A stretch of 64,000 nucleotides of DNA from Exobasidium rhododendri (taxonomy: Eukaryota > Basidiomycota > Exobasidiomycetes > Exobasidiales > Exobasidiaceae), in contig CP110632.1 in NCBI GenBank assembly GCA_026210745.1, positions 3,471,001-3,535,000 on the forward strand, given 5' to 3'. How positions within the stretch are numbered: position 1 is the first letter of the stretch; the number at the start of each line of letters is the position of its first letter. A program made the translations under genes and the position numbers. Under the pieces are notes generated by a model. It was not told the DNA's origin, ran no database searches, and was given only the letters and a program-made list of their open reading frames with translations. Of the stretch, positions 14,629-22,878 are shown piece after piece.

Positions 14629-16615
14629 ATGGTGACCATCGCGAGAGACGGCTACGAATGTGACTGTGACGCGTGGAATGAGAGCTCTACAAATCCGCTT
14701 AACTGGTCCAGGCCGCGCAAATGGCGAATAACATTGACGGCTTGCTACATGTCCAGCCTCATATCAATTGCTGCCTCGGCATATTCCCTCGGTGTTGATC
14801 AAATGACGGTCGACCTTCATGCACCTCGCCTGCTCGTCATAGCCGGCATATCTTCGTGGGTTTTTCGGGTTGTAGGTGAAATTGTGCCTACTGATCAATG
14901 GTCAAGCCAACAGCTTCACCCTACCTGTCGCACTCTTCCCTCTTTTCCTGGCACCGCTAGGCGAGGCAATTGGTAGGAGAAACGTGTATTTAGCATCCTA
15001 CACTATCTTCTTCAGTCAGTTTTGGAAGTTATTGATCGAAGCGCACCCTTCTGAATTCCCCTCTACAGTATTCTTCCTGCCAGTAGCTCTAGCACGGAAT
15101 ATACAGACCGTCCTTATCTCTCGGTTCATTTGTGGAGCTGCAGGCTCTGTCGGGTCAACTATGGTGAGTAACATCGATCCTTTCAGGAAATCTCGTCCAA
15201 TCCGACTGTCTTTTGTCAGGTAGGAGGAACTCTCTCTGACATCTGGAAGAAGGAAGAGTGAGTCTATCTTCGGCTTTTGAAGAGGAATATCGACTATTGC
15301 AAAACTAATTATCTCAGACGTGGGCTGCCAATGGCTCTATTTTCCCTTTCCGCTCTCTTTGGCACCCCTATTGGGCCAATCGTATTCTCTTGGACTGGTA
15401 CATATGCTTCTTGGCGATGGATTCACTGGAGCATGGTAAGTTTTCCCGCGATCAGAGGGGCGTTCAGAAAGCTTACTACAAACGATTTTCAAAGCTTATT
15501 AGCTTCGTGCCTTCGGCCATCGTGGTGCTGACTGTATTTACTCAAGAAACTTTACCCACTGTCATTCGTCGCCGAAAAGGGTTTGAGAAGATTTCTACTC
15601 CCACTTTCAGCTCTCGATGGCAACGCATTCGTCAGGCACTGGGGAAGTCAGCGGTTCGACCTTTAGGTATGATTGATGTTGACAAGACCTATATGAGCTC
15701 AAGCCTAGGCTAACACTATCAATTATCCTTGCAGTGTTCTTACTGACCGAGCCAATCGCAGCAGCTCTATGCATATGGATATCATTTGCTTGGGGTTGTC
15801 TCTACCTATTTCTTGAGTCTGTCCCAATTGTATTCGAGCCATATGGCTTCGTTGCAGCGTCAAACACTCAAGGGCTTGCTTTCGTCGGACTTGCCGTGGG
15901 CGCTCTGATTGGGTTTGCAATTTGCGTAGTCTCAGATAGATTACGTCCCTCCTCGGCCACCTCGCCCGAAAAGCGATTGGAGAATGCATGTGCAGGTGGT
16001 ATCCTCTTCACTGCCGGTGAGTGAAACATGTTTAGTAAAATTGATGCTCTTTTAACGCTTCGAGAAGGCTTCTTTTGGTACGCATGGTCGGCAAAGCCTG
16101 GCGAAATTCACTGGATTGTACCACAACTCGGTACTGCTGTGTTGATGACTGGGTTGTTCCTCTTTTACGTGAGTGACCCCTCTGGCAAAATAATCGATCA
16201 GTCATAGTGCTCATGAAATTGTGAATAGGTGTGCATCTTTAATTATCTGGCCGATTGCTATGGCACGTACACCTCTTCTGCAATCGCAGCACAGAGCTTC
16301 TCGAGGAACATTTTAGCCACTGGTAAGTTTTGCGTTTTGCCACTTTTGACGCTCAAAGTGTTACTGAAAGATTTCATTCGGAAGCATTTCCGCTCTTTGC
16401 AACGCAAAGTGCGTATGCAAGGCGACAGTCAGAGTCACGTTGAGATTACTTATGAATGCGCTCCTACAGTGTATCAAGCTCTGACGTATCCTTGGGCCTC
16501 TAGCTTGCTCGGATTCCTAGCGGCGATCCTTGCTCTGGTCCCGTTCCTGCTGCTAAAATTTGGGCCAGAATTAAGAGACCGCTCACCGTTTGCTCGTCAG
16601 AGTCTGCTCGACTGA
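14629..16615 (+). CDS. MFS transporter, DHA1-type (multidrug/polyamine-like)
   Basis: About eleven exons with very short introns (31-78 nt), ending at the stop at 16613-16615. The start is the ATG at 14629, opening VTIARDGYECDCDAWNESS then NPLNWSRPRKW, a typical cytosolic start of fungal DHA1 carriers. Conserved pieces follow in order: APLGEAIGRRNVYL (loop 2-3 signature), ARNIQTVLISRFICGAAGSV, GGTLSDIWKKEERGLPMALF, GTPIGPIVFSW..WRWIHW (motif C-like), FSRNILATAFPLFATQ and the C-terminus PWASSLLGFLAAILALVPF then KFGPELRDRSPFAR. All frames join, so the gene appears intact. Substrate unknown; the neighbouring arsenic genes suggest metalloid or thiol-conjugate export, but this is inference. The Tc1-like element ends only 85 bp before the start codon. 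Confidence 0.85.
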
Positions 16616-16845
16616 CAGTCTTGAAGGAGACAGTGTCCTCTTCCAGTTAACATCAATCAAAAATGGCCAGCCCCTGTATTTTTATGTGATATCATCACTC
16701 CGACCCCTCTGCGTATCTCAATGGTCTCGATCGAACACGTATGCTCTGGTCGAATATCGGTTCGACATGCCACTATGGAGTGCCCTCTGAATTGTTCTTT
16801 CCAGCGATCTTTTGAACAGAATATGGAAAAAGACCTGATTCATTT

Positions 16846-17391
16846 CTACAATTGTACAGTAGCCTTGCCATTGGTCACTCCCCGTTCTTGTAGCGAGCCT
16901 TGTCCAAAACGAGCTTCCCAAGCCACGAGGCCACCCGTCAGTACTCTCACTCTCTTTGATACAGCTTCGTTGGGTAGGTTTAAGTGCTTTTGCAAAGCAT
17001 CTGCGTACCATCCAGCTGTGCGAGGACCCCTTCCATTTGACCGACCACAGTGAAAAATAATCATTGGTATAGGCGCCAATAAGTGTAGTAAGGTAGGCAA
17101 GGCGACGTGAAAAGAGTGTGCAGGTAGATTGATTGCACCTGGAATCATTGACTGTGGATGAAAGTCAGCGTGCATAAATCTCTCTGACTTCCTTGGCTAG
17201 TAGCTCACTAAGCAATCTGCCCTCCGAACATCAATCACAACAAATCCCTTTGTGCCTGTAGGCTCTTTGCCCATCTCATGTTCAAGCTCTTCGACGGTGA
17301 TCTTGGCCAAAGGACAATCTGACCTGTCTAAAGGTGCTGGATAAGCGTCCATCCATTTCTTCGAATTGATAGGGTGGTCATCTTCGTGCAT
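16846..17391 (-). CDS. ACR2: Arsenate reductase, Acr2/Cdc25 (rhodanese) type
   Basis: Reduces arsenate to arsenite using glutathione and glutaredoxin, so that arsenite can be exported. Two exons: 17391-17209 and 17151-16846 with a 57-nt intron, giving 162 residues, close to the usual Acr2 size. The rhodanese/Cdc25 fold shows FVVIDVRRADC, then PGAINLPAH, then the active-site loop IIFHCGRSNGRGPRTAGWYA, which fits the HC-X5-R signature of Acr2/Cdc25 phosphatase-like enzymes. The C-terminus VRVLTGGLVAWEARFG is the typical rhodanese end. An upstream in-frame ATG at 17550 would add 53 unrelated residues and was not used. Divergent from the SPX-RING gene and convergent with the MFS gene. Confidence 0.87.
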
Positions 17392-21386: not shown

Positions 21387-21891
21387 CAAAATAAGATCGG
21401 AGCTTTCGATCAAAGTCTGTAGCCTTTAGTCATCTCAAAACAGAACACAAATGTCGTAATCACCTCCTTGCTTTACCCATGAAAATCCATGACTATGTTA
21501 CAACGCAGTGTCGTGGGAGACATTAACTTCAGAAGTGCTCTGTGCATTGCTGCAAGTATCTTAAGAGTCATTATTGCAAGGTGTCAGAGGCACTAGCCCC
21601 TGCTATCGTCGCAATGTCAACTTTGCGTCTACATCAGGAAAACGGACGATGTCTCAGCAGTCTGAGCTTTTTCTCAATGAACACACTTTGTTGACTTGGA
21701 ATCTTCTCAAGGCTTATCACTGTGTCAAGGTAGGCCGAGCGAAGCTTCGATGCTCGTCTTCTTAGGTTTAATCGATACATCATTCTGGCCCAACTGTGCT
21801 TTATATAGCATCAGATTGAGCAGATGCCACAAGTTTGGGACACAGAATAAGATCCTTGTAAAGCAGAGATAATCTACTGGCGGGTAGGCCT
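21387..21891. other. Convergent 3' region between ACR3 and ArsH
   Basis: About 505 bp between two stop codons facing each other. A 63-codon plus-strand frame (21574-21765) has no family similarity. It presumably holds the two 3' UTRs; nothing else recognised. Confidence 0.5.
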
Positions 21892-22878
21892 CTAGGCCTC
21901 CGTCTTAGCTCCAGAATCCGTCAATGTTGAGCGCAATTTCTCTTCCTCGTCTTGAGAGCGCAGACGTCCATGCTCTTCTCGCTCTACTCTCTCACTCCAG
22001 CGATCAGCGAAAAGCTTTTCCTTGCCGTAGAAAAGAACAGATGTTTTCACCAGCTCTTCACACACATCAACGAGACGATCACGATTGCTTGAAGGCAGCA
22101 TCCTTCCCTCGCTGTCGAAAGCAGTCCATGCTTTTGGTAGGCTGGCTTGGTTAGGAATCGTGAACATCCTCATCCATCGTCCAAGCACCCGGAGTGAATT
22201 GACCGCATTGAAAGATTGACTACCACCGTTGACCTGGAATTATAACGTCGGGACGGGAGCAGACAGTCAAGCTATTCATGATACTCACCTGAGAAACGGC
22301 AAGAATTTTACCCTGCGTTGGCCGAACGCTCCCTATCGATAGGGGAATGTGATCAATCATTGTTTTGAAGACACCAGTTATCTGGCTAAGTAAGTAGGCG
22401 AGTTCAGCAACTACTCTTGTATGCGCCGGACTAAACTCACCCATGCTGCTCGGGAGAACACCAGAAATTGGTATCACTCCATTCCATAAGACTTCTGAGC
22501 TCCATAACTTTCAGATGTGAATTGTCGCAGTCGTCTTTCAGAGGAAGACCCTTTGGACTAAAGACCTGCACTTCGCAACCGAGGTGATGAAGCAATCTTG
22601 CAGCCTCGTAGCTCATCAGCCTTGAATATGATCTGCATGGCAGAGGAGACCAGTAGTAAGCTTTGAGAACATTCCGCGATAAATCTGATCTCCACTACTA
22701 CTACCCACTTCTCTCGCAAGCTCCCATAGAGGACGAGTATTCTAATCTTTCGAGGCAGACTCTCAGCAGATTCCTTCGTATCGAGCAACCCCATGGCTCC
22801 TTGCCCGTCGATAACGTCTCTTGTCCAGTCAGATGTCCCCGATGGCAGCATAAATGACTGATACTGATTGACTTTCAT
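21892..22878 (-). CDS. arsH: ArsH, NADPH-dependent FMN reductase / organoarsenical oxidase
   Basis: Flavoprotein that oxidises trivalent methyl- and aromatic arsenicals to less toxic pentavalent forms. Four exons: 22878-22709, 22632-22441, 22385-22289, 22233-21892 (introns 76, 55 and 55 nt), giving 266 residues. The joined protein is a close ArsH: IRILVLYGSLREKSYSRLMS, YEAARLLHHLGCEVQVFSPK, WSDTNFWCSPEQHG, ITGVFKTMIDHIPLSIG, SVRPTQGKILAVSQVNGGSQ, SFNAVNSLRVLGRWMRMFTI, PNQASLPKAW. The GSLRExSYSR segment is the FMN phosphate-binding loop. The start MKVNQYQSF was chosen because ArsH normally has about 40 residues before the first beta strand; the longer frame up to 23202 runs into the adjacent transposon repeat. 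Confidence 0.93.

What the first reader, a model, noticed from the sequence alone, without database searches (positions are those of the whole stretch)
14629..22878. Compact arsenic-resistance island with five adjacent genes
An MFS transporter, an Acr2-type arsenate reductase (HC-X5-R loop), an SPX-RING ligase, Acr3 and ArsH occur side by side in about 8 kb with no unrelated gene between. Acr2 and Acr3 adjacency is known from yeast, and ArsH occurs in several fungal clusters. The addition of a phosphate-sensing-type ligase and a DHA1 transporter would make an integrated system: reduce, export, oxidise organoarsenicals and adjust phosphate/arsenate uptake. The functional link of the last two is inference.
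Basis: partly seen in the sequence, partly recalled or inferred. Interest (0 to 1): 0.8.

Follow-up and report, generated by a model that had tools for sequence, protein, structure and literature searches.

The report
Arsenic gene cluster with ubiquitin ligase
A smut-lineage fungus carries five side-by-side genes between repeated elements: an arsenate reductase, an arsenite pump, an organoarsenical oxidase, a transporter, and a ubiquitin ligase that descends from a phosphate-sensing ligase, no longer has a recognisable sensor, and shares a promoter and a promoter motif with arsenic genes.

Summary
Observation confirmed, one label corrected. Window 14629-22878 encodes five intact spliced genes: DHA1-like MFS(+), Acr2-type rhodanese(-), RING ligase(+), Acr3(+), ArsH(-). 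Acr3 and ArsH pass NCBIfam equivalog cut-offs. The "SPX-RING" gene has a RING but no detectable SPX: it is a diverged relative (30%) of this genome's true SPX-RING on C1. Its close relatives (98, 77, 69%) come from unnamed assemblies.

New support for one system: AATTTCAAAY (81 sites in 17.65 Mb) occurs three times in the window, once each in the ACR2|RING, ACR3 and ARSH promoters, and again upstream of unlinked ACR2 and ACR3 paralogues. The island MFS lacks it (repeat-derived sequence lies upstream), but its closest paralogue has it. A second ArsH>Acr2> locus lacks Acr3, RING and this MFS; an ArsM-like gene is 24.5 kb away.

Best reading: a probably co-regulated arsenic cluster with a recruited E3 ligase whose phosphate sensor is eroded, most likely lowering arsenate entry by removing phosphate transporters (inferred). 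MFS membership is open. The paper searches named below showed no precedent in the listings seen.

The parts
14629..16615 (+). MFS transporter, DHA1-like, 11 exons, 474 aa
   Evidence: Spliced model; PF07690 109 bits; closest paralogue C2:19860-21872, 62% over its longest matched piece, 42-71% by piece
16846..17391 (-). Acr2-type arsenate reductase (rhodanese/Cdc25-like), 2 exons, 162 aa, HCGRSNGR loop
   Evidence: PF00581 30.4 bits over cut-off 22.2; the search with it finds one further locus, the copy beside ArsH2
17392..17672 (.). 281-bp bidirectional promoter ACR2|RING, motif AATTTCAAAT at 17580-17589
17673..19474 (+). RING-type E3 ubiquitin ligase related to the SPX-RING family, SPX not detectable; 6 exons, 490 aa; RING at residues about 393-433
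19475..19941 (+). ACR3 promoter with three ATTTCAAAT cores (19756, 19771, 19786), 147-177 bp before the ATG; AATTTCAAAT once, at 19786-19795
19942..21386 (+). Acr3 arsenite efflux carrier, 3 exons, 432 aa
   Evidence: TIGR00832 359 bits; tree of Acr3
21892..22878 (-). ArsH organoarsenical oxidase, 4 exons, 266 aa
   Evidence: TIGR02690 314 bits; paralogue C3:1344661-1345677
22879..23195 (-). ARSH promoter, motif AATTTCAAAC at 23003-23012, 124 bp before the ATG
12026..12740 (.). 0.7-kb element with terminal inverted repeats; nine other copies listed at 100%
   Evidence: counts are lower bounds
12812..14184 (+). Tc1/IS630-type DDE transposon (387-aa frame 12896-14056), probably inserted in an older low-copy repeat (12735-12814 + 14166-14546)
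23196..24628 (.). 1.43-kb TIR element bounding the island on the right
26884..27597 (.). second copy of the 0.7-kb element, 94%
27624..29055 (.). second 1.43-kb TIR element

Best explanation
A repeat-bounded arsenic-resistance cluster of a Ustilaginomycotina fungus. Steps resting on family membership: Acr2 reduces arsenate to arsenite, Acr3 pumps arsenite out, ArsH oxidises trivalent methylarsenicals. Step shown by sequence: a RING ligase related to the SPX-RING (Pqr1/NLA) family sits head to head with ACR2, and the ACR2|RING, ACR3 and ARSH promoters share a rare motif, so ligase and arsenic genes are probably induced together. Inferred: the ligase, without a recognisable SPX sensor but with RING and neighbouring region kept, ubiquitinates phosphate transporters (the route of arsenate entry) whatever the phosphate status, closing the arsenate gate while reductase and pump clear what is inside. 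The MFS may export a related anion or be a bystander.
For: Gene models and families. Shared motif: best-shared 9-mer, 5 of 7 ars promoters, against at most 3 in 100 shuffles; 5 of 6, against at most 4 in 1500 sets of GC-matched real segments; AATTTCAAAY has 81 sites per 17.65 Mb, 0.005 expected in the three island promoters, one in each observed. Two of the five are unlinked paralogues, ACR2-2 and ACR3-2. The best paralogue of the island MFS, not used to find the motif, has it about 230 bp before its likely start. Relation of the ligase to SPX-RING: hhalign 99%, E 4.9e-18. Relatives at 98, 77 and 69% align throughout the part of exon 5 they cover. Precedent: in S. pombe ubiquitination of Pho84 depends mainly on Pqr1, which is needed for its internalisation (PMC8294586, PMC10704438, passages read); arsenate enters yeast mainly through Pho84, and how Pho84 is degraded under arsenicals is called ambiguous (PMC11050377, passages read).
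Against: In S. pombe both SPX and RING of Pqr1 were indispensable (PMC8294586, passages), so an SPX-eroded ligase may not act like Pqr1. The motif is not arsenic-specific: 75 of 81 sites lie elsewhere, four of them in 6 kb at C3:4874862-4880738 by non-arsenic frames; random placement of the sites gives a run of three within 5.5 kb in 52 of 2000 trials. ARSH2 has only a one-mismatch site; island MFS none in 444 bp. The motif was picked after looking. Of the four alpha4 lysines two are arginine in the island protein (still basic) and lysine in P0124. The relatives cover exon 5 only and say nothing about the N terminus. hhalign used 3 and 2 sequences and part of its score is the RING. No expression data; no target known.
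Confidence: 0.55

Rival explanations
1. The ligase belongs to the arsenic response but its target is another protein: a regulator or membrane protein such as Acr3 itself or a nutrient transporter, or arsenic-damaged proteins. The SPX remnant is then only a scaffold.
For: SPX not detectable; 23% identity to SPX-RING over the aligned columns. Yeast Acr3 is turned over by Rsp5-dependent ubiquitination (PMC11050377, passages).
Against: The retained region lies between the LYxWR helix of the SPX-RING architecture and the RING, compatible with keeping parental substrates.
Confidence: 0.25
2. The core is an ordinary Acr2/Acr3/ArsH arsenic cluster; the RING and MFS genes are neighbours by chance, caught between repeats.
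For: Repeated elements on both sides; unlinked ars paralogues lack both genes in the stretches fetched; MFS lacks the motif.
Against: RING lies inside the core, between ACR2 and ACR3, sharing the ACR2 promoter with the motif 83 bp from its ATG; relatives down to 69% identity persist.
Confidence: 0.2
3. The MFS is a Shp2/Tpo1-like facilitator exporting arsenate or phosphate, completing the system.
For: Its closest paralogue carries the motif; S. pombe Shp2, an MFS protein orthologous to Tpo1, facilitates phosphate export independently of Xpr1 (PMC11742622, abstract and passages).
Against: Large family, 66 match rows in the genome; only one of six S. pombe Tpo1-like proteins shows the activity (same paper); no motif at the island MFS; orthology to Shp2 not tested.
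Confidence: 0.2
4. Transposon-driven or horizontal acquisition: the block arrived as a unit from elsewhere.
For: Repeats end at 14546 and begin at about 23196; GC is 0.45-0.48 in the island and 0.43-0.44 to its right, against 0.47-0.52 in the rest of the window.
Against: Island Acr3 groups with Ustilaginomycetes and Malassezia Acr3 (SH-aLRT 95, quick tree), no sign of a distant donor; the left 0.7-kb copy is 100% and the right one 94% like the others, so they probably did not insert together as one composite element.
Confidence: 0.15

Closest known systems
S. cerevisiae ACR1-ACR2-ACR3 locus
   Same: Arsenate reductase and Acr3 carrier close together, ACR2 in a bidirectional promoter (PMC11050377, passages)
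   Different: There ACR2 shares its promoter with ACR3 and Yap8 controls both; here ACR2 shares it with the RING gene, ArsH is added, no Yap8 core TGATTAA in the seven promoters scanned
arsBHC-type operons of bacteria and the similar neighbourhoods of green algae (PMC7826186, passages)
   Same: Efflux, ArsH and reductase genes together
   Different: Reductase here is Cdc25/rhodanese type, plus ligase and MFS
SPX-RING ligases: S. pombe Pqr1, Arabidopsis NLA, fungal RING-14
   Same: C3HC4 RING and the region before it
   Different: No detectable SPX; two of four alpha4 lysines replaced by E and G, two by R
S. pombe Shp2 / S. cerevisiae Tpo1 (DHA1)
   Same: MFS, DHA1-like family
   Different: Specific relation untested

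Membership tests
ACR3 arsenite efflux family | TIGR00832 equivalog above cut-off | tested here: met
   359.4 bits, cut-off 282.8
ACR3 arsenite efflux family | As(III)/H+ antiport activity | not testable with these tools
   Needs assay
ArsH | TIGR02690 equivalog above cut-off | tested here: met
   313.8 bits, cut-off 292.25
Acr2-type arsenate reductase | Small rhodanese/Cdc25-like protein with HC-X5-R loop | tested here: met
   PF00581 30.4 bits, HCGRSNGR
Acr2-type arsenate reductase | Closer to Acr2 than to the Ych1/Ibp1 phosphatases (recalled distinction) | tested here: inconclusive
   No PDB sequence match at E<=0.1, no NCBIfam match; indirect: both loci found with it also hold an ArsH
SPX-RING ligase (Pqr1/NLA/RING-14) | C-terminal C3HC4 RING | tested here: met
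   zf-C3HC4 27.2 bits over cut-off 21
SPX-RING ligase (Pqr1/NLA/RING-14) | N-terminal SPX domain (PF03105) | tested here: not met
   the C1 gene has it at 3e-42
SPX-RING ligase (Pqr1/NLA/RING-14) | Inositol-pyrophosphate-binding residues: Tyr/Lys of alpha2, four Lys of alpha4 (roles recalled) | tested here: not met
   MKFGK and EYKQLKK stretches absent from the model; KILKKHDK of C1 is ETLGRHDR: two lysines lost, two changed to arginine
DHA1 drug:H+ antiporters | MFS_1 domain | tested here: met
   109 bits
DHA1 drug:H+ antiporters | DHA1 rather than another MFS subfamily | tested here: inconclusive
   TIGR00880 82.7 bits under cut-off 131; QDR2 as best PDB match, 7.9e-08
Fungal arsenic gene cluster | Same gene set clustered in related species | not testable with these tools
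   No fungal genomes with context in the collections offered; metagenome scans capped at 0

The most novel reading that the evidence does not exclude
A dedicated arsenate-gate ligase: an SPX-RING copy was moved into an arsenic cluster, put under the ACR2 promoter and the arsenic motif, and stripped of phosphate sensing, so that arsenic, not phosphate, decides when phosphate/arsenate transporters are destroyed. Bolder still: cysteines of the altered region, three of them invariant in the four sequences aligned (exon-5 residues 140, 191, 210) and absent from the two SPX-RING proteins aligned, could bind arsenite and make the ligase itself the sensor. At these identities the cysteine conservation is no evidence by itself.
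Probability: 0.2. Interest if true: 0.85.

Novelty: new variant of a known kind. Interest (0 to 1): 0.6.

Why it matters
How cells remove the phosphate transporter that lets arsenate in is described as ambiguous in yeast (PMC11050377, passages). A ligase related to the one that removes Pho84 in fission yeast, placed under an arsenic gene's promoter and without a recognisable phosphate sensor, would answer that for one fungus and show how a nutrient-control ligase is re-wired into a toxin response. The shared motif also gives a testable candidate arsenic response element, where the seven promoters scanned hold no Yap8-type core.

Tried and rejected
SPX label: rejected. Recent segmental duplication of the whole island: not supported; island Acr3 and C2 Acr3 are not sisters in the tree (quick tree, SH-aLRT only, the C2 row is a long branch; 58 of the 120 listed hits were used), and only ArsH is close (82-86% in three pieces, 59% in the N-terminal one). 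Distant horizontal transfer of Acr3: no sign. Composite transposon made by the two 0.7-kb copies: unlikely, left copy 100% and right copy 94% like the rest. Known fungal elements: Yap8 core TGATTAA, TGACTCA, TGACGTCA and TTACGTAA in none of the seven promoters; TTASTAA only at ACR3-2, CACGTG only at ARSH; the short GATAA is in five of seven and GAANNTTC in three, neither followed up.

AlphaFold of ligase exon 5 with three relatives: mean pLDDT 56; Foldseek found nothing at E<=0.001 and no SPX protein among 43 matches at E<=10, so no structural statement either way. PDB sequence search with Acr2: nothing at E<=0.1. The four-site motif cluster at C3:4874862-4880738 was opened as a possible second arsenic cluster: of ten frames scanned, one VIT1-family match, nothing else above a Pfam cut-off: against motif specificity. 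Three further places with paired sites were fetched and looked at only for open frames and island homologues (an MFS piece of 29% at C3:55 kb). Eight paper searches showed no title or abstract start that describes a RING ligase in an arsenic cluster; one search listed 20 of 31 papers and 15 of 252, the other six listed what they found. Passages were read in seven papers: PMC11742622 (abstract too), PMC10704438, PMC8294586, PMC11050377, PMC7826186, PMC11370035 and PMC12860867; the last had no hit for cluster, neighbourhood, ArsH or synteny.

Species identification was not achieved: Ustilaginomycotina by Acr3 neighbours; genus unknown.
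Full report
What is there. The window lies in a 17.65-Mb fungal genome of four contigs, C3:3471001-3535000. Acr3 neighbours place it in Ustilaginomycotina. I built spliced models for all five genes; every frame is open with GT-AG introns. Order and strand: MFS> <Acr2 RING> Acr3> <ArsH. The finding's coordinates run exactly from the MFS start codon to the ArsH start codon. Six stop-to-stop frames in and around the gaps were scanned; only Acr2's own exon matched Pfam. Acr3 and ArsH are equivalog-level members of their families. The Acr2 call rests on fold family and the HC-X5-R loop and on genome context: the search with it finds just one further locus, and that one also holds an ArsH. 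A rhodanese-family scan at E<=0.1 gave seven matches in the genome, two of them these.

The ligase. Pfam sees only the RING; SPX is not listed even at E<=10 for its main exon, while the same scan finds SPX in the Hohenbuehelia RING-14 protein at 8e-26. A genome-wide SPX scan at E<=0.1 gives 11 matches at five loci, none here, and it can pick up separate N-terminal exons (C2:2046575-2046667). The 281-bp gap before the gene translates to nothing like an SPX start. The genome's SPX-RING gene is at C1:5783915-5786599 (SPX 3e-42 plus RING), 30% identical to the island protein over residues 172-483. Profile comparison ties the two with 99% probability, from the LYxWR helix through the RING, 228 columns at 23% (profiles of 3 and 2 sequences, the RING contributes). 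In the alignment the N-terminal MKFGK and EYKQLKK stretches are missing. The four alpha4 lysines of KILKKHDK are E, G, R, R in the island protein and P0001; E, G, K, K in P0124; T, D, Q, R in P0002: two lost in all four sequences, two often still basic. That these residues bind inositol pyrophosphates is recalled knowledge. So it is an SPX-RING relative with an eroded sensor; whether any binding remains is open. Two searches of 5.8 billion proteins found three close relatives, from sources named only jgi and lgn: 98%, 77% and 69%, plus the 30% Hohenbuehelia protein (7995 and 6290 candidates scored). They cover exon 5 only.

Paralogous loci. ArsH2 and Acr2-2 (55-66%) stand in tandem at C3:1344661-1346626; ArsH2 is 82-86% identical in three pieces and 59% in the first. 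Read on the opposite strand, the island is ArsH> <Acr3 <RING Acr2> <MFS, that is, the same ArsH>Acr2> pair with Acr3 and RING between. Next to Acr2-2 is a convergent aquaporin-type gene, and 24.5 kb on an ArsM-like methyltransferase (145 bits, under the cut-off of 263; the same search finds matches in all 14 control genomes, over the cut-off in one, so the name rests on the high score). It could supply substrate for ArsH. A second Acr3 (64-69%) is at C2:698444-699622. In the 30 and 20 kb fetched around these two loci there is no relative of the RING gene or this MFS.

Shared promoter motif. Among seven ars promoters the best-shared 9-mer is AATTTCAAA, in five; 100 shuffles of dinucleotide blocks reached at most three. 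With six promoters (MFS left out) and GC-matched real segments, coding or not, as control: five of six against at most four in 1500 draws (1271 draws gave two, 226 three, three gave four). In the 64-kb window it occurs three times, all in island promoters (shuffles of the window give three or more in 8 of 100, so the placement is unusual, not the count). AATTTCAAAY has 81 sites in the genome, its reversed control 39. Expected in the three island promoters 0.005, observed three. Distances to the start codons: RING 83, Acr2 188, Acr3 147-177, ArsH 124, Acr2-2 144 bp. The Acr3-2 site lies 262 bp before one candidate start and nearer to three others. As a test outside the discovery set, the closest paralogue of the island MFS (C2:19860-21992) has a site about 230 bp before its likely start; chance for 450 bp is about 0.002. 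Against: the motif was chosen after looking; 75 of 81 sites lie elsewhere, among them four in 6 kb without arsenic genes recognised; sites placed at random give a run of three within 5.5 kb in 52 of 2000 trials and two or more such runs in 2; the island MFS lacks it in 444 bp; ArsH2 has a one-mismatch version only.

Repeats. Left of the MFS lie a 0.7-kb TIR element, a Tc1/IS630-type DDE element, and a low-copy repeat (two other places, 90 and 81%) that ends 82 bp before the MFS start codon; right of ArsH lie two 1.43-kb TIR elements and a second 0.7-kb copy. At C1:1250633-1251074 both sides of the low-copy repeat are contiguous but for an 18-bp overlap, so the DDE element probably inserted into it. 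The MFS may have lost its own upstream region to these events; that is inference.

How it most likely works. Reduction by Acr2, export by Acr3 and oxidation of methylarsenite by ArsH follow from the families. The added step, inferred, is removal of phosphate transporters by the ligase. Pqr1 of S. pombe is an SPX-RING ligase on which Pho84 ubiquitination and internalisation depend (PMC8294586, PMC10704438, passages read). A yeast review names Pho84 as main arsenate entry and its degradation under arsenicals as ambiguous (PMC11050377, passages). Shp2, a Tpo1-like MFS protein, facilitates phosphate export in S. pombe (PMC11742622, abstract and passages), a possible parallel for the MFS. A serious objection: both SPX and RING of Pqr1 were indispensable in S. 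pombe (PMC8294586, passages).

Verdict. A real, probably co-regulated arsenic cluster of ordinary core and unusual extra part. The claim that the ligase belongs to the arsenic response I hold at about 0.75, that it acts on phosphate transporters at about 0.45, that the MFS belongs at about 0.4.

Noticed in passing
G000 C3:4874862-4880738 (L043, L044): Four AATTTCAAAY sites (seven ATTTCAAAY cores in 8 kb) among frames mostly without Pfam match and one VIT1-family gene; cause unknown.
   Followed up: partly
G000 C3:1371143-1371892 (L048): ArsM-like methyltransferase, 366-aa frame, 24.5 kb from the second ArsH-Acr2 pair.
   Followed up: partly
G000 C3:1347265-1348560 (L038): Aquaporin-type (MIP) gene convergent with Acr2-2; NPARSLGPDAV looks more like an orthodox aquaporin than an aquaglyceroporin (recalled criterion).
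   Followed up: partly
whole genome G000: Three large contigs of 7.13, 5.45 and 4.98 Mb make up all but 88 kb, suggesting few, large chromosomes.
   Followed up: no
window 640-2742, - strand: Large squalene/hopene-cyclase-family frame (could be lanosterol synthase).
   Followed up: no
window 29668-32259, + strand: 864-aa frame with PAS domains, right beyond the repeat-rich stretch.
   Followed up: no
G000 C3:129385 and C3:129965-130891: Another MFS gene (25% identical) with a motif site a few hundred bases upstream.
   Followed up: no
G000 C3:4264680-4265102 (L001): ArsB-family (PF02040) match, 33.6 bits, over the cut-off of 22.2; function unclear.
   Followed up: no
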